Of a DNA stretch of 64,000 nt, positions 28,560 to 50,847 are shown in pieces; within the stretch, counting starts at the first letter, position 1; the number at the start of each line of letters is the position of its first letter. The notes under the pieces were generated by a model. It did no database searches. It was not told the origin of the DNA and saw only the letters and a program-made list of their open reading frames with translations. The position numbers were made by a program, and so were the translations under genes. The stretch is from positions 558,001-622,000 of the forward strand of contig JAJHTX010000001.1 of the NCBI GenBank assembly GCA_032164295.1, given 5' to 3'. The DNA is from Inonotus obliquus (taxonomy: Eukaryota > Basidiomycota > Agaricomycetes > Hymenochaetales > Hymenochaetaceae).

Positions 28560-29829
28560 TTAACTTGAAGCCCTACTCGCTAGTAGGTTACCAACAAGAG
28601 AGGCTTCCAACCACAGCGAATCACCATGCAAACCTCCCAGTACATATTCAATGCCCTCTTTAGCAACCTCTCGCCTCTTCTCCATCGGACCCCAACCCTT
28701 TACATCCGGTGTAACGGTCAACATATGTGCACCAACGTGCGAAGCCGCGCTTCTAGCGAATTCCTCATCAACCCGCACACCTCGTGTATACGCTTCCATG
28801 TATGCGCGCAGAGCCGTGATGACACTGGCGTCCGTTTTAGGATGAAAGCGTCTTAGAGTATTCATTTCGGCTGTGAATTGCGCGACGTCTATGAATGGTA
28901 AACCAGGCTTTGCTACCTCCCAGTCGATTATGAAGATTCGCTCGATTTCGTTGTGTCCATTTAGTCGTACGACAACGTTGCCGGTCCAGAAGTCACCCAT
29001 GGTGAACGTCGTTTGCGCTTCGAAAATCTTCTTGACCGTAGCATTAACAAGCATACCGATCTCCGCCATCTGTGTCTCCGAGGGTACTTCCGCGCCAGAC
29101 AAGGGAGGTTCAACGATTCCTCCTGTCTCTTGACTCGTTTGCTTCAATACATCGACAAGTCTCGTATAAGTTATCCACGCTGTAATCGTCCTTCCTTCAT
29201 CGTTCTTCCGTACGATATCCATGAGTTCTTTATCCGCCGACCCATGTATATGTATCGCAGCAAGGAACTGACCGATAGCAGTCCCCAGATTGCGCGAAGC
29301 TGGTTCGCTCAGCGGAGTTTCGCGTAGGAGGTCTTTGAGGTTTCGCGCGTTCGGACCTGCATCTTCTGTAATCAGTATGTGCGCATCCGGGTCGTAGAGA
29401 TACAGTGCAGGAACTGTTGCAAGCGAGTCGGATGGAAGAAAAGCGTGTACATGTTCCAAAGCAGCCGCCTCGAAGTTCTGTCATTTTAATCATCACCCAA
29501 TAAATATATCAGAATCACTCCTGCATCCCAACCCCATCAATCCTATAAAATCCATATATACATACCTGCCTTATAACATCCAACTCGAACTCCGTATTAC
29601 TCGCTACCCAAGCTTTCGCATGCTTCAAAATAACCGTCTTTGCACCTATACCACCAGCGATTTCAAGCGGTTTTGTAAGGTATAACCTAAAAACAAAATT
29701 TGCGGTTCCACCGGAGACTTTTTCGGCGCGTGTACTGGCGAATGGTGTGTCTGTGAGGTATGATAGTACGTCTTCTTCTCGGGAGAGGTCGAGGTTGGAG
29801 TTTGTAGGGTTTATGGTGACAGTGGTCAT
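28560..29829 (-). CDS. Aminoglycoside-phosphotransferase-fold small-molecule kinase
   Basis: Two exons (29566-29829 and 28560-29477) give a 393-residue protein of the APH/choline-kinase-like fold, similar in layout to fungal methylthioribose- or fructosamine-kinase-like proteins. The N-lobe shows the Gly-rich strand ASTRAEKVSGGTANFVFRLY and the ATP-binding lysine in KTVILKHAKAW. The Brenner-like catalytic motif is TMGDFWTGNVVV near residue 240, so the usual His before Gly-Asp is Met here, while Asp and Asn are kept. The metal-binding Asp is in IFIIDWEVAKPGLPFIDVAQ. The substrate is not readable. The left end of the 4-kb segmental duplication lies in its single intron, so a stray copy of exon 1 occurs near 57.2 kb. 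The complete gene is only here. Confidence 0.86.
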
Positions 29830-30346
29830 TTTCTTAGGGGAGGGGTGGAAGGGATGGCAACGAAAACTTAGTAGATCCTGTGCTGGCTTTAGTTGTTTAA
29901 CGTCATGAATAGGTTGTACCGTGAAGCTTTGCAGACATCTAACATTTATAAACGAACTTTGCCCACAGTCGAGTCAGAAACATAGTGCCATTCGGCACCG
30001 CTGGAACTGAGTCACCTACGTCTGCTGCTCGACCATTCATGACTCGCTTGACAGTTCCAGGGTGTACATAACGATCACATCGCCAGCGCCCACTCCAAAA
30101 CTGACAGATACAAAATGATTCGGAATTTGGATTCAATCCGAAAATGTATTTCGTACAACACGTCGTACATCTCCAAAGTAGTTCTACCTTGGCACTCCCA
30201 GCGTCAGCTTTAGTTAGTCTACACTGATGGGGGAAGTTTGACAAAAACAGGGGAGCTACAGTAGGGATACAGAAAATAAAACAAATTGTAAGTTAGCACA
30301 GACAGGAGAGTATTCTCCATAATCTTCCTCCACAACACATAGACCA

Positions 30347-33323
30347 TTAGAGTTTGTCGTAGTAGGTGTCGAGGGACGGAATATCGGGCTATTGAAGGAG
30401 GAATGATAAAAATTTGAGATGATACATTGGCAGGCAGAAATTACAAACCTTGAGACCCTTGCGAACACGGATGTTTCTGACCATCTCTTCGAGCTTACTT
30501 CCCTTTGTGGTAGGAGCTACAGAGGGAAACCATGAGTCAACTGTGCCAATCTTACTGTAGACAGTCAAAATACATACATCCATTCATGACCTCCCAGTGG
30601 TCGAAGACCGATTGGGGGAAGGCTTGGCCTTGTGTATGTGAACGGAGATCCGCAGTGAAACCAAACGATTCGTTGACAGGCAGATATGCCTTGACAGTGA
30701 ACATTGGTGTTCCCGGACGTTGCTCCTCGGAGAATACCTGACCACGACGCCTGTTCAGACAACTGTAGATACCACCAATCGCGTTCTCAGGACACTGAAT
30801 CTCAACTGTGAAGGGAGAGAAATGGATTAATAGCGGTAGGGTAAGACAAAGCAAGTACGGCTAACCAAGGTAAACTGGTTCTTGGATACCTGGAGTTGCC
30901 AACAAGCATGCTGCGTAGCAAACACGACGGGTAGTCGGAATTATTTGTCCACCACCACGGTGAATGGCATCAGCGTGTAGCTAGAAAGCGTTCTTAGCCG
31001 ATGGGGAAGGGGAAAAACGCTGGTCAAATAATGCTTACCGTGACATCAATGACGTTGAAGCGAACACCACGCATGTTTTCTTCAGCGCAGACACCTTCCT
31101 TGGTTGCCCACTGGAATCCAGCAATACATGAATCCTTGATTTCGTTCAGGTACTGCACACCCTTCGTGACGTCCACAAGCAGGTTGGGACCAGTCGTCTC
31201 AGGACCGAAACACCAGATCTTACGAGCATCGGTGACATCCCAGCCATACTCGTCCGCGAGGATACGTGCACGAGCCTTGAAGTCGTCACGTGGGTTGATC
31301 TTTCCAGCCTCGATAGCTTTCGAAAGCTCCTCATCAAGAGGCTCAGCCTTGACGTACAGACGATTGTGCTTGTTCTGTGATTTCGAAAGAGCAACAATCG
31401 ATGACTCGGCCTTAACGGTCTCACGATAACCGACAACAGGGTCCGATTTCTTGAGTGGGACACCGGCATGATCCTCCTCAAGATCTTTCAAGCAGATCTC
31501 GAGGTGAAGCTCACCGACACCAGCAACGATGTGTTCACCAGACTCGTTAATCAAGACCTGTACGCACGGGTCTGACTTTGACAGACGTTTGAGACCTTCG
31601 ACCAGCTTCGGCAGGTCAGCCGCGTTCTTCACTTCAACAGCAACTTGAACGACAGGGGAGACGGAGAACTTCATGACCTTCATGTTGTGTGCCGTTTCAC
31701 TCTCCGTAATCGTGCCGCTTTTGAGCAGGAACTGATCAACACCGACGAGACCTACTATATTACCAGACGGGCAGTCTTCGATGGGCTCGATGTAGCGACC
31801 CATCATGAGTACTGTGCGCTGAACAGCTTTGACAAAAAGATCTTCCTTCTTTCCAGGGAGGTAGTTCGGGCCTTGAATTCGGTACTTGGGGCCAGAGCGT
31901 ACAGTTCCAGAGAAGACACGACCGAACGCGTAGAAGCGACCCTTATCGGACGTCGGCACCATCTTCGAGACGTACAAGACGAGAGGGGCCTTCGGGTCAC
32001 AATCACGGATACCAATGGCAGATTCGTCATCCATCGGACCCTCGTAAAGAGTCTCAACACGGTAGCGTTGTGCCGTTGCAGGTGACGGAAGGTTGATGAC
32101 AATCATTTCCAACATGGCTTCCCCAGCCGGGAGGAATTTGCGCATGCAGGCCTTGAGAAGTGCCTTTCCTTCAAGATCCTTCTCTTTTTGAGTGAGCTTC
32201 ACATCGAGCTTTTCAAGCATGCTGAAGGCGTGTTCCTTCTTGAAGTTCATGACGGCATCGAAGATCTTGTAGATTGGGTCAAGAACGAACATGTTAAAAG
32301 CACGTTCCAGCTGTTTGCCATCGGCGTCGGACGACTTTGTCGACCATTTCTTTGTCGCTGGGTTGAAGAAATTGTCACCCCAGAGCTTGGCCATCATCTT
32401 TTCCCTGTCAACACCGAACTTCTTCGCGTAACGATTTGCGAACTGACGGAGGGTGAAACCCCAGCCGTGCTTACCAGAACCAAACGCGATGGTACCCGTG
32501 TCAGGATAAACTTGGACATCACCAAGGGCAGGGTCATGATAAGTTGAGATGATGACATTCACAGACTCGATTGTTCGTAAGAAAGTCTGGAAGAGGTCTT
32601 CTTTGTTGACTTGAAGCTCAAGAAGGGCACGGTCCACTTTGTTGATGACCAATACGGGTCTGATACGCTCTGCCAAAGCCTGGCGCAACACCGTCTCTGT
32701 CTGCACGCAAACCCCCTCGATACAATCGACGACGACGAGAGCACCATCAGTAACACGGAGGGCGGCCGTGACCTCTGACGAGAAATCGACGTGTCCCGGT
32801 GAATCGATCAAGTTGATCAGGAACTCGTTGCCTATTAAACATGAATACTCTGCGAGAAATTCCAAACAGAAAGACGACTAGCCATCTGTCTTTTGCTTAA
32901 TAGATTCTACTTGCTCTTTGTCGATTTCAAAATACATCGATATGGCCGTTGATTTAATCGTGATACCGCGTTCTCTTTCATCGGGTCTTGTATCCATAAA
33001 CACAACGTCACCAGCTTTTGCCGATGCGATAATACCGGCCTTAGAAACGAGAGAGTCTGTAAGCGTGGACTTTCCGTGGTCGACTGCAGATAGTCGGTTA
33101 GAAACATGCGATCTAGTTAAGAGCATATATGCGCATATAGTCGGACGTCGACTCACCATGAGCAATGACACTCATGTTACGGATATTTGTGGGCTTGTCC
33201 ATCAGGGCCCTAATCTGATCTACCGTGAAGTTACTGTATGTATCGCCATCGTTTGAGATAGGCAAAGGAGATCAGGCAGCACGATCAAAGTGAGACACGA
33301 GGAACTACATCAACATACACCAT
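30347..33323 (-). CDS. EF2: Translation elongation factor 2 (eEF2), left copy
   Basis: This is the GTPase that drives ribosomal translocation. Eight exons give 842 residues, the usual eEF2 length: 33319-33323 (ATGGT only), 33157-33233, 32883-33083, 31039-32831, then four C-terminal exons ending at 30347. GTPase motifs are intact: HVDHGKST (P loop), DSPGHVDF and NKVD. The diphthamide site is His699 in [12 protein letters not shown]. The intron 32832-32882 starts with GC instead of GT. The copy is complete, but it differs from the right copy at about 15 residues, mostly in the N-terminal part, and at nearly all of these the right copy has the residue usual for the family. The most striking is Met57 in [13 protein letters not shown] where eEF2 normally has RFTDTR. 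Others are Lys for Leu in GSGKHGWGF and Val for Ala in AGVGELHLE. Expression is uncertain because its upstream region is cut at -162. Confidence 0.95.
32832..32882 (-). other. Non-canonical GC-AG intron in eEF2 (left copy)
   Basis: The coding text needs Gly from g+gc between QKTDG and NEFLIN. This requires a donor starting GC (TG/GCTAGT) and the acceptor ATAG. The only nearby GT would create an in-frame stop. The same intron occurs in the right copy (60323-60378). Confidence 0.8.
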
Positions 33324-33665
33324 GGTGTCCAGATTTTGTTTGAGAACAGAATCAAAGAGTTTTTGGTATGTGAACACCCGAAGCGAAGTATCTGACTATT
33401 CTGAGACTAAAGGAAGAGGTAGGTCCAAGTCGAGCAGGTCCTGCAACGACTTGGGAGGAAATGAGAGAGGTGGAACTGCACAGTTGTGTTACTGGTGACT
33501 GGCAATTATAAGACTTGACCCGTTCCCACGGCCATGCCGCGACATGCCGGCGATTGAAGAAGGTCCACTCGACTGCACATTCACTGTGTTTTAAAGGTTG
33601 CTATTAGCTTTTTGTTAGCTTCGAATATCTCGAATAAATGTGGCTACACAGATTACCTTACATGG

Positions 33666-33735
33666 TGAAGAGAACTAGGTGTGGCTGAGCTTGGTATTGA
33701 GCCTGGTATCCCATTCTACACTTACCCCATGCTAC
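33666..33735 (+). repeat. Fragment of 1.3-kb TACCG-rich LTR (family C)
   Basis: About 70 bp starting TGAAGAGAACTA matches the 5' end of the LTR-like repeats at 40952 (plus) and 47192 (minus). It is broken off where an LTR of another family begins, which suggests insertion of the latter into the former. Confidence 0.75.
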
Positions 33736-34095
33736 TGTTACAATGTACTTTTCCTAGACATTATTCGATACCTTCTTTTCCTTTTTCGTCATCCATTCTT
33801 TAATCTTCTGACACTGTGACTTGAACCCACAACCACTCACTCCTTTCTTTCTCTTACATAAAAGACTGAACCACCAACTGACACTGATTGGTCTGTACAC
33901 CGTCAATGATGTTGGTCTGTGCACGCTTAATGTTGTAGATAGTCCCACAGTCCAATACAGTATAAAAGGAGTGGGGAGTCCACCATAGCCACCTTGGCTT
34001 TGGTATTCTCTCCATCTCCTGGTGTTAAGTCATCTGATGTGTGCTGTCCTTCTAAGGGGGCGTAGCCTATCTTGACGTTGTACCTTGTAAGTGCA
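33736..34095 (+). repeat. LTR-like repeat, family B, copy 1
   Basis: It starts TGTTACAATGTACTTTTC and contains a TATA box (TATAAAAGG at 33961) followed by a conserved leader. It is similar along its length to 35442-35830 and 53394-53743. Between start and TATA it carries a reverse-oriented tRNA-like T arm (box B complement at 33818-33827). The 3' limit is approximate and no target duplication was found. Confidence 0.65.
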
Positions 34096-34740
34096 GTAAA
34101 GCTGGTGAGACTGGGTTAATTGCCAGGCCATCTCTACCGATGTCGACTCAAGCTACATCTGGCTCTGTCCAGACCTTGTAGTCTTGGGTCTCTGATGTTG
34201 GGTTCCTCCCTGCTTACTCTTGCTAAAGAGAAATACCAGAGGCTATGATTGATACGGGCTCAACGCTGTGATTCTACCACTTCTTACTTCTCTTTGGTCT
34301 ACAGTACTTCTGCCATCCTATCTACACCTGTGGTTCAGACGGAATACGAAGCTTCTGCAATTCGACAAGGCTAAGATCAATTTAGAACTGGTCCTGCATG
34401 CTTTAAGCCAGACTTCTGTGCCATTACTGAACCACCAATTCTTTCGCCCATCCTCCATCACAGTACCGAACCACCAGTCTTTAATATCAATGATACCAAT
34501 ACTGTACCATCCACCTGTCCTGATACCAACATTTAATAGTCCACCATTAGTCGATACTACGCTCTCGACGGTCCATACCAAGAGAAAGGTTACAAACTGC
34601 AATCGGTCTGCCCTACGTTACTGCAAAGAGTTGGATCATCAAAAGTATCAAAGCTCCAAGCCTGACGGTCTGCCCTACCAAACCGCCACACATCGATACC
34701 AGTGATACCAGTGTTGATACTGGTGGCCCACTCTGGTACT
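34096..34740 (+). pseudogene. Gypsy internal-region relic with protease-like DTG motif
   Basis: After the family B LTR a short leader leads into a stretch containing the peptide EAMIDTGST, which looks like a retroviral-type aspartic protease active site, followed at once by many stops. The downstream 400 bp is repeated at 42700-42823 plus 43371-43646, where a solo LTR interrupts it. There is no usable frame. This is a degenerate retroelement remnant. Confidence 0.5.
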
Positions 34741-35441
34741 GATGTTCGTGACATGTGCTAGGTTGATTCCGCACCCTCAAAGATCTATGTCAAGAGGAAG
34801 GTTGGGAAATGAATCAAATCTGTCATACGCTACTTCAATCTCGAAGGAGACCATCAATCCAACTTGGAAGCAAAGTCAAGCAACGCCCAGTTGAGCCAGG
34901 CAACGCGTACCAATAGATATCAAGAGGCACGAGCGATCTTATCGATGCCCAGAGATGATCCCAGTGTACTGATTGGTACTGAGCGATAGAGTACTCCAAC
35001 GCCAAGGTTAGGTTATACTGACATGTCAGGATCGGTGCACACCGTCCGATCACTCGGTAGATGCCCAGACTGACGCCGCACAGATCATAATACCGGAATA
35101 AAGGTAAATCTGGATGACGCACTTCTCTAGAGAAGAAGACAACAGGGCTATCATCAGGAGCACCCTTGCTGTAGCTTGAAACACATCCTTACTTTAGCAC
35201 TGGTTAATGTCGGTACCGCCACCCTACCTCGGTATCACTCGTCATGAGTTTTCATTGGATTCCTGTCTTGTTCCACCCTATTCTTAGCTTCCCCCTGATA
35301 AAACTTCTTATTCATTCGACATCTTATGTTTCCCCTGATTATATTTTTACATTTATATCGACCTTATGTTCTCCTTCTTGTACCAGATTGTGGTACAATT
35401 CAACTTGTAAAATTCCTCATTTGGTATCTTAGATGGCTATG
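34741..35441. other. Unassigned repeat-region DNA
   Basis: About 700 bp without an open frame of meaning lies between two family B LTR-like repeats. It is likely decayed retroelement interior, but no motif was recognised. Confidence 0.35.
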
Positions 35442-35830
35442 TGTTAGGATCTGCATTTTCATTACATTATCCATTTCCTTTTCCATCATCTTTGTCATCC
35501 TTTCTTTTATTTCTTCTGACGTCATGACTCGAACCCACGACCTCTCACTCCTTACTTTCCTTTTCTTAAAATAGTGACCCGGCGACTGACTTGCCTTGGT
35601 CTGTGCACAGTCAATGATGTTGGTCTGTTCACCATCAATGTCGTAGATAGTTCTCATGATCAAAGTGAATAAAAGGAGAACTGGGGCCATCAGAGCAACT
35701 CACTTTGGTATCCCTTCATCCTCCAGGTGCTAGGTCTAAGCCCTGCGTGCTTCCTCCCTTTCTAAGGGGCGCAGCCCACTTGGACGGCATATATCGTAAG
35801 TGCGTCAAGCCTGGTGTTATCTGATCTGAT
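35442..35830 (+). repeat. LTR-like repeat, family B, copy 2
   Basis: It begins TGTTAGGATCTGC and shares with copies 1 and 3 the tRNA-like T arm in reverse orientation (35526-35535), the CTGTGCAC..CAATG block, a decayed TATA (GAATAAAAGG near 35669) and the CTAAGGGGCGCAGCCC leader. The 3' end is approximate. Confidence 0.6.
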
Positions 35831-35945
35831 TGCCAAAGTCACCTCTTCGTCACTGTTCCACTCTTTGGCGTACCACTCAGTGTTGTTCCACTCTTCACTG
35901 CTCTTCTGTGCTCGATGTTAGGACGGACGAGGTGGCGGTGCACAC

Positions 35946-36337
35946 TAGGGCTCCGCGCGTATCTTATCCGGAAAATAGCGGATCCGTGCGGATATTTTCT
36001 TAAAAAATTTGTACTGAGACCATTTTATACCCTATACAGTATATTAGGGGTTGTAAAATCGTCTAAAATAGCAATCTTTCGATTTGACATAGTTTTATCA
36101 TGTGACCCCAAAAATTGATGTCAGCACAACTGATTTAATGATTTAGCTTATCCGGTTTTGGCGCTGCTTATAAGGACACGTTTAACTCCATACCTTGCTG
36201 GCATCTTGTTTCTACTTCTCCAAAATTGCATGGTAAGTAACCCATAGGAAGGTCTATCTGATGCTGCCATAAAAGTTAATTAAAGTGTTTTACTTTCCGA
36301 GGAACCTTAAACCACCGGATCCGCGTGCGGAGCCCTA
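35946..36337. mobile_element. hAT-type MITE (392 bp) with 8-bp target duplication
   Basis: The ends are inverted repeats, TAGGGCTCCGCGCG at the left and CGTGCGGAGCCCTA at the right. It is flanked on both sides by GTGCACAC (35938-35945 and 36338-36345). An 8-bp duplication fitting nTnnnnAn and ends starting TAGGG are typical of hAT transposons. The interior is AT-rich and has no transposase frame, so it depends on an enzyme coded elsewhere. Confidence 0.88.
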
Positions 36338-36353
36338 GTGCACACTCAAGGCC

Positions 36354-36873
36354 TGTTCTCACGAAGGTTGTCTGGTGATAACCTCTACTGCACCTTGGGA
36401 AGAGTACACAGTCATCGGCGATGTTTGTCTAAGGTGATGAGCCTTGAGTAATGCACGCGTCTAGGAACAGTATACGACTGAGACGTCGTGGTGGTAAATA
36501 GATTGAATAAACTAAGTAAGTACAAGAGAGGAATACCTGAGATGTCGTGGTGGTAAGTAGAAGAGTCGAGTGGGGAAGACTAGACAAGATCTATCTACTT
36601 ATATACACCTGGATTGTGGGAAGGTATTACTCTAAGAAGGTGCTGCGCAGCAGCATAACAATATAACCAAATAAGCAACAGGGCCGACGAGTCAGCAAGA
36701 ATGAGTAAGCGTGAGTAAGCGTCGTCGGGGTTGGGGCAGAATTAGTAATGCAGTATTAGTAATATATCGGGATGGGGCGAAGGGAGTCATAAGGTATTAG
36801 TAATGAAAGGAAATTAGTAATATAATGGAATATGAAAAATAAGAAAAGACAAAAAAGAAAAAATGTTCTTACA
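36354..36873 (-). repeat. LTR of the chromovirus group, reverse orientation
   Basis: Read on the minus strand it starts TGTAAGAACA, holds TATATAAGTAGAT and two CTTACCACCACGACATCTCAG-like blocks, and ends GTGAGAACA. The TATA-to-leader part is clearly related to the LTRs at 43647 and 49136. No matching target duplication was found, so it may be a rearranged LTR rather than a clean solo LTR. Confidence 0.6.
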
Positions 36874-37976
36874 CTCAAGTCTCTTTAGGGATGTCGGCAA
36901 GGCTCCATCTGAGTCTTCCCAGTCCTGCTTCTGTCGTCCTCTCCTGACGAAGATCTTCTGTGCTGTCCTCTGATTGCTTCTAGTCTAGTCTGCTAGTCAA
37001 CGATGTCCCTCCTCTCAGACCTCGTAGGAGAAGTACATGGTGTTGGCCACATGTCACTAATCCTGCCCACAAGTTGCCGTGGCTGTGTGCAAGCAGCCTA
37101 CCTGGCGTTGCCTGGGATACCCTTTGTGGATCCTACCTAATGCTGCCTAGGTGGATCAGTCTCCTGGTCCTGCAAGTATAAGGCTTCCCTAACGAACGGG
37201 AAGTATCTCTGCCTTGGTCAAGTTCTCCCAATCCTTGGTAGAGCATGTCAGCCTCTCCCTCCCTCGATGATGTATGTTGGTGGAGGTTATTACTAATCAA
37301 AGCCCAATGACATCTCTGTCGTCGTGTAAACCTGCAAGTCCCCCCTTTCTCCAGTCCGCCCTATACCTGGTGTAGTGACCTTGCGTTGCTATGTCTCCCT
37401 TCTCTTGTCATCACCTGCGATGGTGCCCTCTACTTGGTTTGGTGGTTTAACTACTAGACCTCATACTCCCTTCCTCCGACATATTATATTCATACTGCTC
37501 CTTCTTCTATCCGAGACTCTTTAGGTTAATGGTTGTAGGTTTGTCAGCCATGCACCTCCTCCTCTCGTCTTCTCAACGACCACACCGATCCCCTCTCTTC
37601 CTTCTTGTTGCCTCTGCTGGGTAAGGATTATGTTCCTCGCCCATTCCTCTTATGTAATATGCTTGGCCCTTTGTGCCGAGGTTGTTGGGAATGTTCTCCT
37701 AACAGCATAGTAGTTATCTGACGTTATCTGTACCCTCTTAACGATTGTGAAGTGTTACCCCTGGCCTTGTTTGCTAGTTGACTAAACACCTCTCTCAATC
37801 AGCGCTGCCTGACAGGAATCATGAGATCCAACAGACCAGCAGTGCCTTGCGGAGAACAGACATATCGTTAGAACTCTAATTGTGCTTGTGTCTTAGTTAT
37901 TAACGATAGGTAGTGTTAACCTGCAGACTGGTAGTCGTCACCATCTGTTCCCCTTAAAGGATCTTAACCTTGCTGA
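36874..37976. repeat. Retroelement leader-like region (shared with 53.9-55.4 kb)
   Basis: This C/T-rich region (on the plus strand) has several blocks similar to 53940-55440, such as CTCTAGTCTAGT and the CTGTGCCGAGGT..GG block near 37672. It probably corresponds to the untranslated leader between an LTR and the gag relic that follows. No gene was recognised. Confidence 0.45.
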
Positions 37977-38880
37977 TGTATGCAATCACCAGTAGACTTC
38001 CAAACCATCCAAAACCCTCCATCTGAAACATCTGAAACATCCCGAACCTCTCCTATGGCTGAAGGGAATGTACCGCTTCCTCCGCCGCTAGGAGGAAATC
38101 TACAAGAACCCATCCTAACCAAAGAAGACGTAGGTTGCATCGCAAGAGCTATCACTTCTAACAGAGAAATCGACTGCATTCTTAACAAACCTGATGAACA
38201 GTCCCAGCCCAGAAGCCGTAACAGCCACATGGCTAAACCTGAAGAGTTTGATGGACAAGACTTTGACAAGTTCATGCAGTCCATCCAACTGTACATTCGG
38301 GCAAACTGACACGACTTCAAAGTGGACTTGGACAGAATCTTGTTTGTACTGTTATACATGAAGGAAGGCACTGCCAATATGTGGGCCAAGAATTACGTCG
38401 AGGAATATCTTGCAGATGAATAAGTAGAACCAAACTGGGAAAAATTTCTGGAGCTACTAAAGGAGTCGTTCCAAGACCCGAATAAGCAAGCAACGGTGCA
38501 AAATGAACTGGCCAACTGCCGCATGGGAAAAGACACTGCAGAAGCATTCTTTAATAAATTCGACATCCTGAGGTGCACAGTGGGTTACATCAAAAACCAT
38601 GATGCTTACCTCATTCAATTAATTGAAAATGCGGTACCGGAGGGTCTTGTACGCTGTATATATCAGTCAGGAACACTGCCCATGGACTACGAAGGATGGA
38701 AGAAAGTCATCATCCAATTGGACAAGCTGGAGAGGTGTTGGAATGACTGAAAGAAAGTCCATGCGCCGTTCCAACCGATCTCAAAACCAGCAACTCGCCC
38801 AGAGGCTCCCTCTCCTAAACCAGCACCACTGACAGACTGACGCGATGCAACGGGCATCACATTCAGAGGAAGGGGGCAGC
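37977..38880 (+). pseudogene. Gypsy gag relic with in-frame stops
   Basis: One frame runs from 37977 and reads a Gag-like protein similar in layout to the Gag at 44505: AKPEEFDGQDFDKFMQSIQL, then LFVLLYMKEGTANMWAKNYV and GKDTAEAFFNKFDILR. It is broken by stops at 38307, 38421, 38748 and 38838, all in the same frame. Every stop (TGA or TAA) can come from CGA or CAA by one C-to-T change. After 38880 the gag text stops abruptly; its zinc-knuckle part reappears near 40640, so about 1.75 kb was inserted. Confidence 0.82.
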
Positions 38881-39546
38881 CTATGAAAATGGATCAAGCA
38901 TGCCGTTGTCAGGCCAGGATATTGCCTGGTCATAAACAATTGTAATATTGGCACGCTTTACACTATCAGAAGCAAGAACAGAGCAGGACATCAGAAAGGA
39001 TAAACAAGAAATATCGGACGTCGCAGTAACTCGTAATTCTGCATACAAGTTAGTAAATCGAAAGCCGATGGAAAGTGCCAAGCTTACTATCAAGCATTGA
39101 GCACAACTCGTCTAGTAACAAGCACCGGTACCCACTCGACCCACTCCTCCTCGATCATTATAGTCGTCTCCACAAATACTCTTCGTGCTATTAACCATAA
39201 AGATCGCAAAGTGTCGAGAAAGTAACTCACTGAATCGGGTTAGAGGAAGCACGACGATACACAAAAGCCAGCCTGAGAAGTTCAGAAGTGTGGCAGAGCA
39301 GATGGTGAAGTCGTGCACGAAGTCGTGAAGGTGGCATTAGAACAAAGAATTGCAGAAAAGGAACTCGAGCGGCGATAGATAAACAAACCATTCTTTATAT
39401 GGTCATGCTCTAGAAGCAGAAATGAAGGTTCAAGAACCACTGGTTGCACCATTCATTTGGTCTTATCTGAGAAGCCATCCAATCCATCGCTCTGGAAAAA
39501 CCAAAGACCATAGTCCAGATACCAAAAACCAAATAAGCCCAAATCG
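38881..39546. other. Unassigned sequence inside split gag relic
   Basis: This is the first part of the DNA separating the two gag fragments. No frame, terminal repeat or motif was recognised in it. Confidence 0.35.
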
Positions 39547-39712
39547 GGTAATTGATTATATCATCCATCAAGTAATCGATTATATCATCCATCAGGTCAT
39601 CGATTATCTTATCCATTAGGTCATCCATTAGATCATCCATTAGGTCATCCATTAGATCATCCATTAGGTCATTCATCAAGTCATCGATTAGATCATTGAT
39701 CAGGTCATCACC
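39547..39712. repeat. 12-bp minisatellite (GTCATCCATTAG type)
   Basis: About 13-14 degenerate head-to-tail copies of a 12-bp unit, GTCATCCATTAG/ATCATCCATTAG. Because the unit is a multiple of three, the minus strand shows a false Leu-Met-Asp-Asp repeat protein. Confidence 0.85.
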
Positions 39713-39724
39713 TTGAACCATATT

Positions 39725-39945
39725 CTGGACTCATCAACTGACTCATTGATGACACATCATTCATCAAGTAACTCATTGATGCGCATCATTCATCAAATAA
39801 CTCATTGATGCACAGCATCTATCAAGTAATTCATTGATGCACAGCATTGATCAAGTCATGCATTGATGCACATCATTCATCAAGTAATTCATTGATGCGC
39901 ATCATTCATCAAATAACTCATTGATGCATTGATACATATCACTTG
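39725..39945. repeat. 29-bp minisatellite
   Basis: About six to seven copies of a 29-bp unit beginning TAACTCATTGATGC and ending TTCATCAAA/G. It lies directly beside the 12-bp array and shares the CATT(G)ATC/TCATC word, so the two may have a common origin. Confidence 0.8.
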
Positions 39946-40630
39946 ATTTGGAGTATTTGATGCATAGCTTTGGAAGGAGACATCAAATTTTGATGATGTG
40001 GTTGATGCAGATCTATTTTTAGCTTATGCTGTGGATTATGTAAATTGGTCTTGGAATTAGTATTTAAGGACCAGCATGTAGCCCCCCAGAGGAGCATAGA
40101 GAACTAACTCATCAGAGAACTAACTAAGCACAAGTTTCCCCCAGGACAAGACCAGCTCACATCACTCTGTGATCTCTTGTCACACTATTTGCAAGTCAAG
40201 TCAAGGTTTCGTCGCATACAGTTGACCTCAGCTCAAGACTGGGTAACTGTATTGCTCAAGGACTAGTTTGGTACTAGTCAAAGGTATTGTATTGCCTCTG
40301 TTCCAATTGGACATTGGTGATAAACCCCCCTCTCAAAGTCGATATCTGATATCTTGAGACTTCGAGTGTGTGTGTCCCTCTAGACATTGACATCTATTCT
40401 GCATAGCTTGTCATTGCCTACCTCGGTGTGGACAATTTAATTGCTCCTCACCCATTGTGACCTATCACTCGCTTTCAAGAGAATTGGATAAAGACTCATC
40501 TCTCACTCACTCTACCTCTCTACTCAAACTTGAGTCCCTCAACCCTCCAACTACAACAAGTTGCCCATAGCTTCAACGAACAACTGGGAAGACTACCCGC
40601 CTAGATAATTAGACCGGTTGACTCAGTGGG
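39946..40630 (+). repeat. Possible LTR with TATA-like box inside split gag relic
   Basis: Before the gag zinc-knuckle fragment there is a 600-bp stretch with TATTTAAGG near 40061, followed by a C/T-rich leader-like region. This resembles the promoter half of a gypsy LTR. Clear terminal TG..CA ends were not found, so the call is tentative. Confidence 0.35.
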
Positions 40631-40639
40631 AGTGTACTT

Positions 40640-40951
40640 GGTTATTCAACAGCCAATACCATCCCAGCACGACACCGTGAGGGACGTTGCTATTACTGTG
40701 GAGATCTTGGCCACATCAAAGCCAACTGTCCTAAGCAAGTGAAGCAGATTCGTGCATCTATCCGGCGAATGACAATGGATAAAAGACAGGATTGGGTAAA
40801 TGCCCTTAGCCACGTCAAAGAAGATGACATGTCTGAAGAAGAAGAGGTGCTTGACCAACAGGAGGATTTTGCAGTGTCCCAGCAGTGATCGCGGCGCTGA
40901 CTGGGATAAGTTTGGGCTTGATTTATTTAATGGGCACTTTTTCTCGAACGT
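40640..40951 (+). pseudogene. Gag zinc-knuckle fragment
   Basis: The frame reads RHREGRCYYCGDLGHIKANC, a CCHC zinc knuckle (C-x2-C-x4-H-x4-C), then RASIRRMTMDKRQDWVNALS and an acidic tail EDDMSEEEEVLDQQED before a stop at about 40888. It is the C-terminal end of the gag relic that begins at 37977, displaced by inserted DNA. Confidence 0.8.
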
Positions 40952-42266
40952 TGAAGAGAACTACATGCGGCTGAGCTCGGTATCGAGCCCGGTATCCTAT
41001 TCTATGCTTACCCCATGCTACGGTATGGTCCCATCTACGCCTTCCAGTATCCACCAGCACACCTAGAGAAACCGTCGGTCCTATTTCTCAAGATACCGAA
41101 CGCCGAGAGTACCGGTACCGAGTGCCAAGAAACCCAGTACCGAGAATACTGAGAGTACCGAGTGCCGAGAAACCCGGTACCGAGACAAATTGACAATTCG
41201 ACATGCTCTCATAACATGGATCGGACGTCTCCCTCTCTGGTATTTATTCCTGATGGTTGGACTATGCATGCCAGTTCTTTGGGAAAGCTCAGGGTCAGTA
41301 TCTGTTAAGGTTTTCAGGTCCGGTACCACCAGGAACATGTCGGTATCAATCAGCAGGGGTGCAGATCTCTTGTCCTGAGGACTTTTCATCCAGGGGTACT
41401 ATATACTACGTTTTCATTGGTATCTTGTCCTCCCTAACCCTTTCTTGTTGTCCCCCTGATGGCGCTGCAATGTTCACTTTCCTTGTTACATTTTTCTTCA
41501 GACTTTTCTTTATTTTGATCTTCCTTTCTACTTTCTCCTTTTGGACTTATGAGCTAACTACGGTACAGTAGTATAAATATCTCCTCCTGTACGTAGTAGC
41601 TCTCCAGGTAATCTTAGGAGCTAGCCTCTAGCATGAGGGCTCGGGTTTCCTCACCCCCTTCTCAGTTCCGTCTCAGTCTCCTCTCAAGCTTCATCCCAGT
41701 CCCATCCCAGTTCCGTCTCAAGTGAACCTTTAGAGTTAGCCTCCTATGTGAGGGCTCAGGTTTGCTTCCCAGTCCAGTCGACACCTTCATCCACCAGTCT
41801 CTCCCATTCAGTTTCTTGCTATACCACCCCGTGCTAGTTGTTTTCTTGCAGTACTGACATGTACCGACGTTTTTCCCATGGTACTGACGTTTTGTTATCC
41901 TTCGTATTCTGCACATCACCTCTTTGTTTCTGTACTGACCTTTGTGCTTGACAACATACCTCCACATACCGACCCCTTTGCTTCTGTACTGACCTGTACC
42001 GAGGTTTTTCCCATGGTATTAGACTTTTGTTTTGCTACGTTCTCCCTTGTACCGACCTATACCGAAGTTTTTCCCACATTCTGACCTGTCCTTTTTGTAC
42101 CAGAATCTCATACTCTTCACTTCCAGCCCATCCATTCACTCCCCCTTTTCATAGACAACAAGTACCGTGACCGTACTGGTTAAGTACCGGCACGTATTAG
42201 CCCTCCCCCACTTAAAACCATACACCCCTCGTCTCGGTATTTCGGTACCAGACGCAATCTTGCACA
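40952..42266 (+). repeat. 1.3-kb LTR-like repeat, family C, plus orientation
   Basis: It begins TGAAGAGAACTACATG and ends TTGCACA (TG..CA). It contains a TATA box (TATAAATATC near 41571) and tandem-like GGTACCGAG words near 41095-41185. A second copy lies in reverse orientation at 45953-47192. It sits between the gag zinc knuckle and the protease relic. The text TTTAATGGGCAC lies 26 bp left of it and TTTAACGGGCAC directly right of it. Membrane-like short frames inside are not genes. Confidence 0.75.
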
Positions 42267-42339
42267 TTTAACGGGCACTCGTAGGATACAAAATAACATA
42301 GAAAAACCATCTCAAAAACAACCAAAAACCACGAAAAAT

Positions 42340-42700
42340 AAATCCTGCCAGAAGGGTCCCACTCGATGCAGTAGAGATTCATTACCTAAGCCACACACTG
42401 CCCCTTGGGTAGTGAGACGAATCAGAGAAGACTCATTGAGCGAGGCCCAGATGGTCCTAAAGCTGTGGATGCAAAAACAGAAGCACAGTGAAATAAGCAA
42501 AGGACTGGTACAGAACCTTCGGAAGCTAAGCCCTGTAGAAGCTGAAGCAGCAGTGCAGCAATTAGCTGCATTTAAATGATTTGTTCAAGGCAGTCAGGGA
42601 CAGCAACTCACAGTCCCTGTAATGCTTCGAACCATGGACAATAGAATCCAAGTTCGAATGTCAGCCCTACTAGACAGTGGTTGTACCAGTAAAGGGTAAT
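42340..42700 (+). pseudogene. Gypsy protease-region relic
   Basis: The frame reads VVRRIREDSLSEAQMVLKLW, VEAEAAVQQLAAFK, a TGA stop, then GQQLTVPVMLRTMDNRIQ and VRMSALLDSGCT. The last block is the LLDSG(A/C)T active-site motif of the gypsy aspartic protease. It belongs to the same broken element as the gag relic. Downstream DNA is unrelated pol debris. Confidence 0.7.
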
Positions 42701-42823
42701 ACCGGAGGCTACAATCGATATGGGCTTAATTCTGTGATTCTACCGCTTCTTTCAATTAACAATACTTCTGCAATTCTACCGCTCTTACTTCTCTTCGGAC
42801 CATGGTACTTCTGCTGTCCTATC

Positions 42824-43370
42824 TGTTACAACACCTTTTTCCATTTCCTTAAATGGCCTTTCTTTCTTTTTCATTGACACATATTTACATTCCTTTAACC
42901 ACATTCCTTACTTAATACTTAGGGGCTTAGTTAATCACAATCTATAACAACTTTATCCACTTCCGTTTCTCATTATTCATTCTCGCTGACTCATTACTTC
43001 TTCTTTCCGTTCAACCCGATGACGCTTACTCATCATTACTCATTCTTGCTGACTCGTCAGGCACTGTTGTTTGTTTGTTCATATTTGCTTGCTGCTAGTC
43101 AGCACCTATTTAGAGTAGAACTTACCCGCGACCAAAATGTATATAAGGCTGGATCAGAGAGTTAGGGATTCCCCACTCTCTTGTTCTAGTACTATCACCT
43201 ATGTCGCAGGTAAGTCGCATGATACCTGTATATTAGATAGACGTTCTAATCTAGTACTATCACCTACGTCGCAGACTACGGTCTTTTGTGATTTAGTGGT
43301 AGCTCGCTTTCTTGCCCGTCGATGTCTCTAGTCCCTGTGATCGACGTCTCCGACTGCACAAAGCGTAACA
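42824..43370. mobile_element. Solo LTR (547 bp) with 5-bp target duplication CTATC
   Basis: The ends are TGTTACAAC and GCGTAACA, with the perfect 6-bp inverted repeat TGTTAC/GTAACA. It is flanked by CTATC at 42819-42823 and 43371-43375. Removing it restores the sequence found uninterrupted near 34320. It holds a TATA box (TGTATATAAGG near 43138) in plus orientation. Confidence 0.9.
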
Positions 43371-43375
43371 CTATC

Positions 43376-43646
43376 TACACCTGCAGTTTGGACGAAGTAT
43401 GAGGCTTCTGCAATTCGACAATTGAGAACTGGTCCTACATGCATTTGCCAGACTTCTGCGCCAATACCGAATCACCAATTCTTACGCCTGTCTTCCATCA
43501 CAGTACCAAACCTCCAGGCTTTGATACTGTACCATCCACCCATCCTGATACCAACATTAAATAGTCCACATTTAGTCAATACTATGCCCTCGACAGCCCA
43601 TACCGAGGGAAAGGCTCACAAGCTACGATCGGTCTGCCAAACGTTG
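43376..43646 (+). repeat. Right half of interrupted pol-relic repeat
   Basis: This continues the sequence split by the solo LTR and is similar to 34325-34610 (shared TTCTGCAATTCGACAA and TCCATCACAGTACC). It ends where the chromovirus 5' LTR begins. Confidence 0.65.
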
Positions 43647-44087
43647 TGTTAGGACTTGAACTTTTCCTTCTTGCTCTGCTTACTTAATTCCTTATTTGTC
43701 ATCTTCCTTTTCCATATATGCTTACTCATCCTTATTATTCATCTTGCTTAGTCGCTCTTTACCAGAATGTTCCGTAATATTCTATTCCCACCCTTACTAA
43801 TATTCTTCTTAAAGTAATATCTTCCCACAACTGGTGTGTATATAAGTAGATAGTCTGACTCATTTGTACCCCGTCTCACTATTCTTCTTACCACCACCAT
43901 CCCTTAGTTATTTACTCATTGTTTGTACTAACTTAAATATATCTTCTTACCACCAGCATCCCTTAGTCTGTGTGATTGTCTCCGTCATTGTACAAGTCTT
44001 CGATGTTTGAGGCAGCGTACCCTAAGCCCTAGTGTGAGAGACCCTGACTCCGTTCGAGTACCCCCGAACCTGTCGTTTTGCATAACA
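43647..44087 (+). repeat. 5' LTR of chromovirus (441 bp)
   Basis: It starts TGTTAGGACTTG and ends CATAACA. It matches the 3' LTR closely but carries an extra segment of about 59 bp that repeats the CTTACCACCA(C/G)CATCCCTTAG block. TATA is at 43839-43846; the inferred transcription start is at 43873. Confidence 0.92.
43839..43883 (+). promoter_or_regulatory. LTR core promoter and predicted RNA 5' end
   Basis: TATATAAG lies 27-34 nt upstream of GTCTCACTATT (43873-43883). That 11-mer is complementary to the stretch just after the LTR, so it is the likely first part of the transcript. The same arrangement is kept in the 3' LTR (11-mer at 49362-49372). Confidence 0.75.
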
Positions 44088-44088
44088 T

Positions 44089-44099
44089 AATAGTGAGAC
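44089..44099 (+). other. Primer binding site of self-priming type
   Basis: AATAGTGAGAC starts one base after the 5' LTR and is the exact reverse complement of GTCTCACTATT inside the LTR. No match to a tRNA 3' end was noticed. This is the layout of Tf1/sushi-type elements, whose folded-back mRNA 5' end primes reverse transcription. Confidence 0.75.
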
Positions 44100-44504
44100 C
44101 TACGTACCAGGACCGTTCAGCGATCTCTGAGTTACCCAGACCTTGCTGTTCCCTCCTGCGGTCTCCCGTTGACGTCAAGTACCACCTGACGAACACGAGT
44201 TTTTACATACCTGGTTTCTACTGAGATAACAACAACCAGCCCGGAGACTGTCAAAGGTTTCCGTGTATTTCCGATCCGTTACAACCTTTCACATGAAGTC
44301 ACCCTGGCGCTTATCGTTACCATTTGGTGCCGAGGAAATGTCATCTACACCAAGGAGTTCCCACACGTTCATAGTGCCCTGGGTTTCTCCATTGTCTTTC
44401 CTGCCTGGATCTTCCGCATTGTATTAAGACTTACTGACGGCTTGCCAACAAACTTACATCAGCACCTAGACCCATTACCTGTACCTCCTCCTCATCGTTA
44501 AACA

Positions 44505-45818
44505 TTGTCGAGAACTCATCGTCGACGTGCCTTACTACTAGACACCGTAGAGAGAGACATAGATGAACTATTTGTTCAGACTCAGCCTATGTCGCCCCCG
44601 TTCCCTACTCCGACGTCAAGAAGCGACTCGGACGTATCCTCTCTAGAGACTCCTGTGCTACGAATGTCAGGCGGACAAGGACAACAACCAGTACCCCCTC
44701 CTGTTCCTCCTAGAGCACCAACCCCTCCAATGGTGCAAGGTTTCAATCAGGCGCAGATGCAGCAGTTTGCGCAGATGTTCGCATTGGCCCTAGGGCAGAT
44801 GCCGCAACCTACAGCCCCCCCAGCCCCACCACCAAAGACTCGTGCAAAGAAACCGAGTGAGTTTGATGGCAGCAACTATAAGGACTTCAAACGCGAGTAT
44901 ACCCTTTGCTTTGAGTCTGATCCAAGATCGTTTCCAACAGGCAAGAGCAAGATCCTCTTCATTCTTTCGTATATGAGAGGAGGAGCAGCCAGCACATGGG
45001 CTCAGAACTACGTCGATGCAAACCAAGCGAATGGTATTCCGGATGACTGGGCCGCCTTCCAAACAACCCTAGATAAGTCGTTTGACGATCCGAACAAGAA
45101 AGAGAAGGCGCTGGAGGATCTTAGGTGCCTGACTCAAGGGAAGATGACAGCTGACGAATTCTTTGTCAAGCTCGACATCAAGCGACAGGCAGCTGGTCTT
45201 ACGGATGCACTGCACGATGGTATCCTTATCGATCGCTTGAAGTATGCACTGAACCTGGAGGTTGTCAAGGGAGTCATGCGCTCAGCCATCGTCCCTACCA
45301 CCTATGATGGCTGGAAGGCCAAAGCGATAGACATCAATAGGATTGAGCAACAGTTGCATCGTGTCTCGACAACTAGGATAGGTCCTTCCCACTTGAACTG
45401 GCCAAACCAAACCCAGACGAGGAACCCACCCCAAGTCCAACAGCCACAGCAACGTCAGCAGCAGGTCTCTCCAGTTCAGCGTGATCATCAGGGAGTAGGA
45501 CCAGGAACTCACCCTGGGATGGGCATACCTATGGACATCATTGTCAAACGAGCAAAGAGGAGCTTTAACTGCTGGGCCTGTGGAATGCCAGGACACATTG
45601 CAGCCAAATGCCCTAGGAAGGAGCAGATTGTGCGGGCAACAATAATGGCATGGGAACCAGAGATGCACCAGCTTTTTGCAGACGAACTGGGAAGAATGAG
45701 GGAGAGCGCCTTTCAATCGATCGACCAAGGTCCCGAGGAGCTGCGAGTGATGCAAGCTGATGTGGAGGATGTCAATGAAGAAAGGGGAGTGGAGGATTTT
45801 ATCAAGGACCAGGAGTAG
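44505..45818 (+). CDS. gag: Chromovirus Gag polyprotein
   Basis: The intact 437-codon frame has a Pro/Gln-rich N-terminal region (QGQQPVPPPVPPRAPTPPMV), then the retrotransposon capsid-like domain (KKPSEFDGSNYKDFKREYTL, ILFILSYMRGGAASTWAQNY, residues about 115-260), a Gln-rich linker, and one CCHC zinc knuckle NCWACGMPGHIAAKC at about residues 354-368. An acidic tail follows. The start is the first ATG of the open frame; an untranslated leader of about 400 bp separates it from the primer binding site. It is the only intact frame of the element. Confidence 0.9.
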   Translation: MSRTHRRRALLLDTVERDIDELFVQTQPMSPPFPTPTSRSDSDVSSLETPVLRMSGGQGQQPVPPPVPPRAPTPPMVQGFNQAQMQQFAQMFALALGQMPQPTAPPAPPPKTRAKKPSEFDGSNYKDFKREYTLCFESDPRSFPTGKSKILFILSYMRGGAASTWAQNYVDANQANGIPDDWAAFQTTLDKSFDDPNKKEKALEDLRCLTQGKMTADEFFVKLDIKRQAAGLTDALHDGILIDRLKYALNLEVVKGVMRSAIVPTTYDGWKAKAIDINRIEQQLHRVSTTRIGPSHLNWPNQTQTRNPPQVQQPQQRQQQVSPVQRDHQGVGPGTHPGMGIPMDIIVKRAKRSFNCWACGMPGHIAAKCPRKEQIVRATIMAWEPEMHQLFADELGRMRESAFQSIDQGPEELRVMQADVEDVNEERGVEDFIKDQE

Positions 45819-45952
45819 TCATCAGGACAACTGGTCAAACCTCACAAGATTTCGTTTTGTCGCATGTATTCCATGACTCATCGTCTGTATACTACATTAG
45901 AGATTTGAAACACGATGACGCTGCACCCTACTATGAAATCTTGACCGATAAA

Positions 45953-47192
45953 TGTGCGAGATCGCGGCCGGTACCGGTCGAGGGGTGTATGGTATAAGAA
46001 TACGGGGAGGGCCAAATGAGGCAGTACTTATCCAGTACGCTCACGGTTCTTGTTGTCTGTAGTAGGGGGATGTAAGGGGAGTCAAAGAAATAATAGAATG
46101 GGGTGCTGGATCAGCTAGACGTTGGGGGGAATGTGTTCTTGTCCGGAATCGAGAGGGTTGGTACCGTGGGAAAAATGTCGGTACAGGTCGGTACAGAAGC
46201 AAAGGGGTCAGTACGTGGAGGTATGTTGTCAAACAAAAAGGTCAGTACAGAAATGAAAGGGTGATGTGCAGAATACGAAGGATAACAAAAGGTCGGTACC
46301 ATGGGAAAAACGTCGGTACAGGTCGGTACTGCAAGAAAACAACTAGCACGGGATGGTATAGCAAGAAACAGACTGGGGGAGGCTGGTGGATGAAGGTGTC
46401 GACTGGACTGGGAAGTAAACCTGAGCCCTCACACGGGAGGCTAACTCCTGAGGTTCACTTGAGATGGAACTGAGATGGGACTGGGACAGAACTTGAGATG
46501 AGACTGAGACGGAACTGAGAAGGGCCGAGCCCTCACACTAGAGGCTAGCTCCTAAGATTACCTGGAGAGCTACTATGTACAGAAGGAGATATTTATACTA
46601 CTGTACCGTAGTTAGCTCATAAGTCCAAAAGGAGAAAGTAAAAAGGAAGATCAAAACAAAGAAAAATGTCATAAGAAGAATGAATACAGTAGAGCCATCA
46701 GGGAGACAACAAGAAAGGGTTAGAGAGGACAAGATACCAATGAAAATGTAGCATATAGTACCCCTGGATGAAAAGTCCTCAGGACAAGAGATCTGCACCC
46801 CTGCTGATTGATACCGACACGTTTCTGGTGGTACCGGACCTGAAAACCTTAACAGATACTGACCCTGAGCTTCCCAAAGAACCGGCATGCATAGTCCAAC
46901 CATCAGGAATGAATACCAGAGAGGGAGATGTCCAATCCATGTCATAAGAGCATGTCGAATTGTCAATTTGTCTTGGTACCGGGTTTCTCGGCACTCGGTA
47001 CTCTCAGTATTCTCGGTACCAGGTTTCTTGGCACTCGGTACTGGTACTCTCGGTGTTTGGTACTTTGAGAAATGGGACCAACAGTTTCTCTGGGTGTGCT
47101 GGTGGATACTGGAAGGTGTAGATGGGACTGTACCGTAGCATGGGGTAAGCGTAGAATGGGATACCGAGCTCAGCCGCACATAGTTCTCTTCA
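45953..47192 (-). repeat. 1.3-kb LTR-like repeat, family C, minus orientation
   Basis: This is the reverse copy of 40952-42266: on the minus strand it begins TGAAGAGAACTATG and ends CTCGCACA. It carries the TATA stretch near 46590-46600 and the tandem GGTACC/CTCGG words near 46975-47055. It replaces the protease and most of the reverse transcriptase of the chromovirus. The bases on its two sides (ATAAA and CCGTG) are not a target duplication, so insertion was followed or accompanied by deletion. Confidence 0.78.
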
Positions 47193-49092: not shown

Positions 49093-49122
49093 ACTCGCTC
49101 TTGATCGGGACGATCAAGCCTT

Positions 49123-49132
49123 GAAGAGGGGG
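49123..49132 (+). other. Polypurine tract of chromovirus
   Basis: GAAGAGGGGG ends three bases before the 3' LTR, the normal place for plus-strand priming. Confidence 0.7.
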
Positions 49133-49135
49133 TAA

Positions 49136-49517
49136 TGTTAGGACTTGAACTTTTCCTTCTTGCTCTGCTTACTTAATTCCTTATTTGTCATCTTCCTTTT
49201 CTGTATATGCTTACTCATCCTTATTATTCATCTTGCTTAGTCGCTCTTTATCAGAATGTTCCATAATATTCTATTCCCACCCTTACTAATATTCTTCTTA
49301 GAGTAATATCTTCCCACAACTGGTATGTATATAAGTAGATAGTCTGACTCATTTGTACCCTGTCTCACTATTCTTCTTACCACCACCATCCCTTAGTCTG
49401 CGTGATTGTCTCCGTCATTGTACAAGTCTTCGACGTTTGAGGCAGCGTACCCTAAGCCCTGGTGTGAGAGACCCCGACTCTGTTCGAGTACCCCCAAACC
49501 TATTGTTTCATATAACA
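49136..49517 (+). repeat. 3' LTR of chromovirus (382 bp)
   Basis: It starts TGTTAGGACTTG and ends TATAACA. It is nearly identical to the 5' LTR except for scattered substitutions and the absence of the extra 59-bp block. Confidence 0.92.
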
Positions 49518-50280
49518 ATAACTAATTCCTTTATTGGACCTCATGATGAACACTCAACAGCAGACAAACTAAATATCGCCTCACATTGTAACATTAGATA
49601 TCATAAAAGCACGTTAAGCCATTCCTCTCACAAAGCATCATACTTGACAAGTCTAATGGTACTTGAGATAATGTCACCCAAAGAAACAAGTAACCATACT
49701 CACTTAGACACTCTATAGACAAGACGCAATTCAACGACTCAATCTACCTATTCAATTTCTCGACAAATAGTTGTTTCAACCCATATTCTAAATAAAGGAA
49801 CATCAGGTATTTTACCCAAATAATTAAACAATAGAATTCATACCTGATTTGTTCTATGCGTCCATCAGAGTCACTTGATGAACGATAGGCCAGAAGACGA
49901 TGCAAGAGAAGATGCAGATGATGGATAAAGCGAGCATGTTGTAGCCTCATGACAGTTAATGATGAGATGTATTTTCACTCATCGGCAATAATTAATATAA
50001 ATTTGCTTGAAAAGTGAAGCTTGGGGAAAGTAGTATTGGGAAGGTCTCCGATCAAAGTATTTAGTGTCTCATACAGTAGAGAAATGTGCTAAGAGAGGTA
50101 CAGAAGTCGCATACAATTGCAGACTCTATTGTTGAGAATAAGTGAGTTTTATTAAACTAAACGCTAGATGTACTCATTAAACCATTCACAGAATGGTGAG
50201 AAATACCTTCTAAATTGGGACAAGTAAAGGTAAAACACTAAGCTTCTCTCAAATAAATTGGTAATGTAGCAGGATCTATG
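49518..50280. other. AT-rich unassigned region
   Basis: Low-GC DNA after the chromovirus with no meaningful frame and no clear element ends. It probably belongs to the element whose promoter-like part follows. Confidence 0.35.
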
Positions 50281-50830: not shown

Positions 50831-50847
50831 GGCATGCAGATCCAGAG

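What the first reader, a model, noticed from the sequence alone, without database searches (positions are those of the whole stretch)
32883..33083. One of two eEF2 paralogues has lost the regulatory threonine at residue 57 (Thr to Met) and has a rewritten switch I region
Seen: the left eEF2 reads [17 protein letters not shown] where the right copy reads [17 protein letters not shown]. Counting from the start, the changed residue is exactly 57 (codon 32995-32997; in the right copy 60491-60493). Known: the equivalent threonine (Thr56 in mammals, Thr57 in yeast) is the site whose phosphorylation inactivates eEF2. Inference: the left copy would be blind to that control, so the pair could be one regulated and one unregulated eEF2, or the left copy is starting to decay. 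Seven changes within 17 residues is far above the divergence of the rest of the gene.
Basis: partly seen in the sequence, partly recalled or inferred. Interest (0 to 1): 0.8.

Follow-up and report, generated by a model that had tools for sequence, protein, structure and literature searches.

The report
Young eEF2 duplicate lacking Thr57
A fungus carries two nearby copies of the translation factor eEF2, and the faster-changing but still intact copy has methionine in place of the phosphorylation-site threonine, a swap that some other fungi also carry.

Summary
The left eEF2 has Met57 where the right has Thr57; the quoted stretch differs at five residues, not seven (8 codons, 11 nucleotides). Both genes have 8 exons and 842 codons; the left keeps the motifs tested, with Lys for Leu at 215. 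They come from a 4.0-kb duplication (96% identity), now split by 23.5 kb of repeat-rich DNA. Against five outgroups, 14-15 of 16 differences are left-derived. The switch I cluster exceeds chance and interspecies variation. No coding indels or stops, so the left copy does not look long dead. But Met57 recurs in fungi: 32 of 219 collected eEF2s, a sample enriched for it (1 of 120 in the untargeted list), 7 changes on a tree; Laetiporus carries the same [10 protein letters not shown] string. Best reading: a young, constrained, fast-evolving eEF2 isoform whose GTPase module is changing and which cannot be phosphorylated at residue 57. Whether escape from that control was the reason is untested; expression is unknown.

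The parts
30347..33323 (-). left eEF2 gene, coding exons 33319-33323, 33157-33233, 32883-33083, 31039-32831, 30866-30980, 30578-30805, 30449-30516, 30347-30388; 842 codons, Met57
   Evidence: gene model with open frame and splice borders; motifs
32883..33083 (-). exon 3 of left copy with the changed switch I block (codons 52-66)
32995..32997 (-). codon 57, ATG (Met)
57838..60820 (-). right eEF2 gene, coding exons 60816-60820, 60653-60729, 60379-60579, 58530-60322, 58357-58471, 58069-58296, 57940-58007, 57838-57879; 842 codons, Thr57
60491..60493 (-). codon 57, ACG (Thr)
29487..33485 (.). left copy of the duplicated block (96% identical to 56976-60981)
56976..60981 (.). right copy of the duplicated block
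28560..29459 (-). downstream part of an APH-like phosphotransferase gene; a matching first exon lies inside the left block, so the gene reads as complete on the left, while the right block holds only the first exon (exon joining by eye)
   Evidence: Pfam APH; translations of both sides
33486..56975 (.). repeat-rich DNA between the copies: dispersed repeats; retrotransposon gag (44505-45818), integrase H2C2 (47414-47905), SH3_Tf2-1 and chromodomain (48277-49092)
61140..63020 (+). arginase-family gene (agmatinase-like; that finer name is recalled), divergent from the right eEF2; limits by eye
   Evidence: Pfam Arginase on two stretches, 61385-61600 and 61856-62131

Best explanation
The left gene is a young tandem duplicate of the ordinary eEF2 gene of a fungus near Sanghuangporus. 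It still encodes a complete eEF2 and was probably kept under constraint for most of its life, but it evolves much faster than its sister, with replacements concentrated in residues 53-322: switch I residues 53-64, position 215 (in the G5 motif, recalled) and others up to 322. Such a protein should still work as a translocase, because Met57 is found in many otherwise ordinary fungal eEF2s, but it cannot be phosphorylated at residue 57 and may differ in GTP handling or ribosome contact. Shown: sequence, intactness, duplication, polarity, clustering. Inferred: that it is made, that it is active, and that phospho-blindness matters.
For: No third eEF2 copy was found in the genome. Tandem origin: the left block runs on into the APH gene, the right block into the arginase-family side, and each lacks the other's neighbour. 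No gap openings in 2529 eEF2 coding columns against 13 in the other 1453 columns of the block, which include the APH first exon. dN 0.0116, dS 0.058. Terminal branches left 0.0193, right 0.0011. 14 left-derived against 1 right-derived changes, p 0.001, with each of four Sanghuangporus outgroups; 15 to 1 with Fomitiporia. 14 of 16 replacements in residues 1-322, against 42% among relatives (p 3e-4). 7 codons with 2-3 nucleotide changes, all replacements, about 1 expected. Met57 in 32 of 219 eEF2s, enriched sample. The EFL1 of the same genome also has Met at the matching place (best solved match is an EFL1 chain).
Against: No expression data. Only 162 bases upstream of the left ATG are duplicated, so its promoter may be incomplete. 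Lys215 replaces a residue that is Leu in 177 of 177 relatives and Thr810 is seen in 0 of 171, which fits weakened constraint. The patch also has 3 synonymous changes in 15 codons (about 0.6 expected, hand arithmetic), so a local mutational event is possible. The neutral simulation rejects free drift of the left copy only if it carries about half or more of the 30 synonymous codon changes: p for at most 16 replacements without a stop is 0.55, 0.12, 0.01 and 0.0005 at 5, 10, 15 and 20.
Confidence: 0.6

Rival explanations
1. Regulatory pair: the left copy was selected to escape Thr57 phosphorylation, so elongation continues from it when a stress kinase shuts off the right copy.
For: Thr57 to Met and loss of the nearby Arg55 in the same copy, clustered beyond chance; Laetiporus P0102 has the same V55-M57-P61 combination and a second eEF2 on a contig of the same length; yeast eEF2 is phosphorylated at T57 by Rck2 (PMC12869077, passages).
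Against: 11 of 16 replacements lie outside the patch; Met57 also occurs in fungi for which the capped lists show no Thr57 partner (copy number not tested); no alpha-kinase was found (controls silent); phosphorylation in this lineage is unproven.
Confidence: 0.17
2. Early decay: a redundant copy with a truncated promoter, released from constraint too recently to have acquired indels.
For: About 18-fold longer branch than the right copy; replacements at nearly invariant sites 55, 64, 215, 322, 533 and at 810; in Laetiporus the second annotated copy P0127 lacks four of five motif patterns.
Against: No coding indels or stops, all seven introns with usable borders; 2 replacement against 21 synonymous codons in 323-842, which free decay would not spare.
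Confidence: 0.2
3. Positive selection on the GTPase module for a reason unrelated to Thr57, such as a changed effector contact.
For: Multi-nucleotide replacement codons 55, 61, 173, 215, 310, 322, 810; Arg55 is replaced in 7 of 219 eEF2s and 4 of those 7 lie in same-species pairs on contigs of equal length.
Against: The pair association rests on few, partly selected records read by eye, and only 3 of the 7 proteins match all five motif patterns (147 of 195 among Arg55 proteins); no agent is known; no biosynthetic core gene was recognised among 28 ORFs scanned.
Confidence: 0.12
4. Assembly or haplotype artefact: two alleles laid end to end.
For: 96% identity is within the range of divergent alleles (recalled).
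Against: Different neighbours, complementary breakpoints and 23.5 kb of other DNA between the copies.
Confidence: 0.03

Closest known systems
Saccharomyces cerevisiae eEF2, genes EFT1/EFT2
   Same: same length and numbering; T57 phosphorylated by Rck2 (PMC12869077, passages); two genes (recalled)
   Different: the two yeast genes encode the same protein (recalled); here the copies differ at 16 residues, including 57
Met57 eEF2 of Malassezia, Wallemia, Mixia, Mrakia, Thecaphora and others
   Same: Met at residue 57 in an otherwise ordinary eEF2
   Different: 31 of the 32 Met57 proteins keep Arg55; here Met57 is in one of two paralogues and Arg55 is lost
Laetiporus sulphureus 93-53 eEF2 P0102 with P0127
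   Same: V55, M57, P61 and V533 as in the left copy (V533 in P0102 and P0127 only, of 219); a second eEF2 on a contig of the same length
   Different: nearest to other bracket fungi, not to this window, so independent; the partner P0127 looks broken as annotated
Sanghuangporus vaninii EFT2_1 / EFT2_2 (P0005, P0109)
   Different: more diverged paralogue, Thr57 kept; not sister to the left copy
EFL1 of the same genome, contig 7 near 1.31 Mb
   Same: Met at the position matching 57 (AGKIRYMDSREDEQERG)
   Different: a separate GTPase (best solved match is EFL1, 80 bits against 57 for eEF2); not the source of the left patch, which keeps eEF2 codons between the changed ones

Membership tests
eEF2 | full length of about 842 residues, sister to known eEF2 | tested here: met
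eEF2 | GTP-binding motifs [22 protein letters not shown] and G5 | tested here: met
   first three exact; G5 stretch reads FGSGKH instead of FGSGLH
eEF2 | diphthamide-loop histidine in DAIHRGGGQ | tested here: met
eEF2 regulated at Thr56/57 | threonine at residue 57 | tested here: not met
   left copy Met57, right copy Thr57
eEF2 regulated at Thr56/57 | a kinase that phosphorylates it | tested here: inconclusive
   no PF02816 alpha-kinase match in the genome, but no control genome rang; the same search type found APH genes, one of them in this window; Rck2-type kinases not searched
pseudogene | frameshift, stop or lost splice border | tested here: not met
EFL1 | nearest relatives are EFL1 proteins | tested here: not met
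   98% identical to the right eEF2; sister in the tree
expressed functional isoform | transcript and protein | not testable with these tools
   no expression data

The most novel reading that the evidence does not exclude
Agaricomycete fungi repeatedly duplicate eEF2 locally and rewrite the switch I segment around residues 55-61 of one copy, in this fungus and Laetiporus to the same V55-M57-P61 set, producing a second eEF2 that escapes a switch-I-directed control: a convergent bypass of elongation braking.
Probability: 0.13. Interest if true: 0.75.

Novelty: new variant of a known kind. Interest (0 to 1): 0.42.

Why it matters
If the left copy is made, one cell holds a phosphorylatable and a non-phosphorylatable eEF2, a natural version of an experiment otherwise built by mutation, and the role of Thr57 in a fungus becomes directly testable. 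Independently of that, the survey shows Met at residue 57 in eEF2 of several basidiomycete groups, so the regulatory threonine should not be taken as universal in fungi.

Tried and rejected
Gene conversion from EFL1 as source of Met57: the own EFL1 segment does not match the patch, and unchanged eEF2 codons lie between the changed ones. A third eEF2 copy as donor: none found in the genome. Retro copy: rejected, introns and flanks are duplicated. Self-resistance gene in a biosynthetic cluster: no core biosynthetic enzyme among the 28 ORFs or exon pieces scanned (10, 8, 10; intron-split genes can be missed). Structure prediction was not run: an eEF2 model would not separate the explanations. No DNA of fungal relatives was fetched (genome search reported no relatives for this genome; genome contigs holds bacteria and archaea; the viral, phage, plasmid and E. 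coli collections were not tried), so branch-specific dN/dS was not computed. Literature: 9 of 10 searches used; none of the listed titles or abstract beginnings described a Thr57/Met57 eEF2 pair in a fungus; subscription papers are mostly missing, so this is weak. One search's pattern used wrong codons and says nothing.

Full report
What is there. The window lies in contig 1 of a 36-Mb, 30-contig genome. Its left eEF2 is nearest to Sanghuangporus (94-95%) and Fomitiporia (93%) among named proteins, so the organism is probably in the Hymenochaetaceae (family name recalled); the species was not identified. Two eEF2 genes lie on the minus strand, at 30347-33323 (left) and 57838-60820 (right). Each has eight coding exons, the first only five bases long, and 842 codons; the introns are GT-AG except the third, GC-AG in both. 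No third eEF2 was found in the genome; the other matches to the eEF2 query are at 31-56% identity, one of them EFL1.

How the pair arose. A block of 4.0 kb is duplicated in direct orientation, 29487-33485 and 56976-60981, at 96% identity. The left block runs on into the downstream part of an APH-like gene and ends 162 bases before the eEF2 start codon. The right block holds only the first exon of that gene but continues into the region before a divergent arginase-family gene. Complementary breakpoints of this kind are what a tandem duplication leaves. The 23.5 kb between now contains dispersed repeats and retrotransposon pieces. The order APH, eEF2, arginase as ancestral is inferred; relatives' DNA was not fetched.

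The finding itself. Codon 57 is ATG on the left and ACG on the right. The quoted 17-residue stretch differs at five positions (53, 55, 57, 61, 64), not seven. Codons 52-66 hold 11 of the 55 coding differences; the maximum in 20,000 random placements was 9. Compared with how relatives differ from the right copy, the stretch is also enriched (5 of 16 against 2.3%, p 2e-5; 157 relatives of more than 820 residues out of 180 aligned, some of them found by a search with the left switch I). 14 of 16 replacements lie in residues 1-322 (42% expected, p 3e-4). Seven codons carry two or three changes and all seven are replacements; about one such codon is expected. Three synonymous changes also fall in the patch, more than the gene average predicts, so a local burst of mutation is not excluded.

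Which copy changed. With each of four Sanghuangporus proteins as outgroup, 14 of the 16 differences are left-derived, 1 right-derived (residue 53) and 1 undecided; with Fomitiporia 15 and 1. Terminal branch lengths are 0.0193 and 0.0011. At 55, 57, 64, 215, 322, 533 and 810 the left residue is rare or absent among relatives: 1, 9, 1, 0, 2, 2 and 0 of 171-180.

Is it dead? The left gene has no stop, no gap opening in 2529 coding columns (13 in the other 1453 columns of the block, the APH first exon included), and usable borders at all seven introns; of the motifs tested only G5 differs, FGSGKH for FGSGLH. dN/dS between the copies is about 0.2. A neutral simulation gives 16 or fewer replacements without a stop in 1% of runs if the left copy carries 15 of the 30 synonymous changes, 12% if it carries 10 and 55% if it carries 5. 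So long-standing neutrality is unlikely and recent release remains possible.

How unusual is Met57? Of 221 stored proteins, two are pieces of the window's own genes; the other 219, from three searches whose lists are capped at 120, read 187 Thr and 32 Met. The sample is enriched: 1 of 120 has Met in the first, untargeted list, 8 of the 62 added by the search with the left switch I, and 23 of the 37 added by the search aimed at Met57. Named Met57 holders are Malassezia (9 of 9 named records listed, in the search aimed at Met57), Wallemia, Mixia, Mrakia, Thecaphora, Parajaminaea, Sympodiomycopsis, Microstroma, Chytridium and Laetiporus. Whether these species have further eEF2 copies was not tested. 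On a FastTree of 203 rows (the two window copies and 201 of 217 relatives; P0011 and P0123 were dropped beforehand, the others by length; the trait columns were left in) the Thr/Met state changes 7 times. [quoted passage not shown] pombe (PMC4712817, passages seen). The title of Bartish et al. [quoted passage not shown] Met57 therefore looks compatible with a working eEF2.

Recurrent changes at 55. Arg55 is replaced in 7 of the 219, and in the left copy. Four of the seven (P0102, P0127, P0109, P0131) belong to species with a second eEF2 on a contig of the same length; by eye I found four such species pairs (Laetiporus, Russula, S. vaninii, Suillus clintonianus), Suillus without the change. Three Somion models on one contig were not counted because they may be alternative models. 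Laetiporus P0102 shares V55, M57, P61 and V533 with the left copy, although its nearest rows are other bracket fungi. This is convergence, by selection or by tolerance of the loop. Against function: 3 of the 7 match all five motif patterns, compared with 147 of 195 Arg55 proteins of 740-900 residues; P0127 misses four patterns and P0131 two, so some may be decaying or badly modelled.

Regulation. In yeast eEF2 is phosphorylated at T57 by Rck2, with lower GTP affinity and ribosome binding (PMC12869077, passages; Rck2 under osmotic stress also in PMC6492140, passages). No alpha-kinase domain was found in this genome, though no control genome rang for that family; the same kind of search did find APH genes, including the one in this window. 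Rck2-type kinases were not searched. So a Thr57-directed control in this fungus is possible but unproven.

Verdict. A real, coding-intact, asymmetrically evolving eEF2 duplicate with a changed switch I and no Thr57. It is a new variant within eEF2. The regulated/unregulated pair remains a good hypothesis (about 0.17), not the default; Met57 alone is weak evidence for it.

Noticed in passing
window 32832-32882 and 60323-60378: third intron of both eEF2 copies starts with GC (GCTAGT) rather than GT
   Followed up: no
window 33319-33323 and 60816-60820: first coding exon is only five bases (ATGGT); four Sanghuangporus records (P0003, P0004, P0005, P0007) begin at residue 13 (MDKPTN), perhaps because this exon was missed
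   Followed up: partly
window 56976-57300: orphan first exon of the APH-like gene beside the right eEF2, left at the duplication breakpoint
   Followed up: yes
protein list: 9 of 9 named Malassezia eEF2 records listed have Met57; the search was aimed at Met57, so other records may differ
   Followed up: partly
P0127 (Laetiporus) and P0131 (Russula): second eEF2 models that miss four and two of five motif patterns, possibly decaying paralogues or poor gene models
   Followed up: partly
P0206: a protein filed under the fern Adiantum nelumboides is 89% identical over 842 residues to the fungal eEF2 P0207 (Parajaminaea), probably fungal DNA in that record
   Followed up: partly
own genome C5:3017761-3028643 and C6:851925-944687: clusters of APH-type phosphotransferase matches
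   Followed up: no
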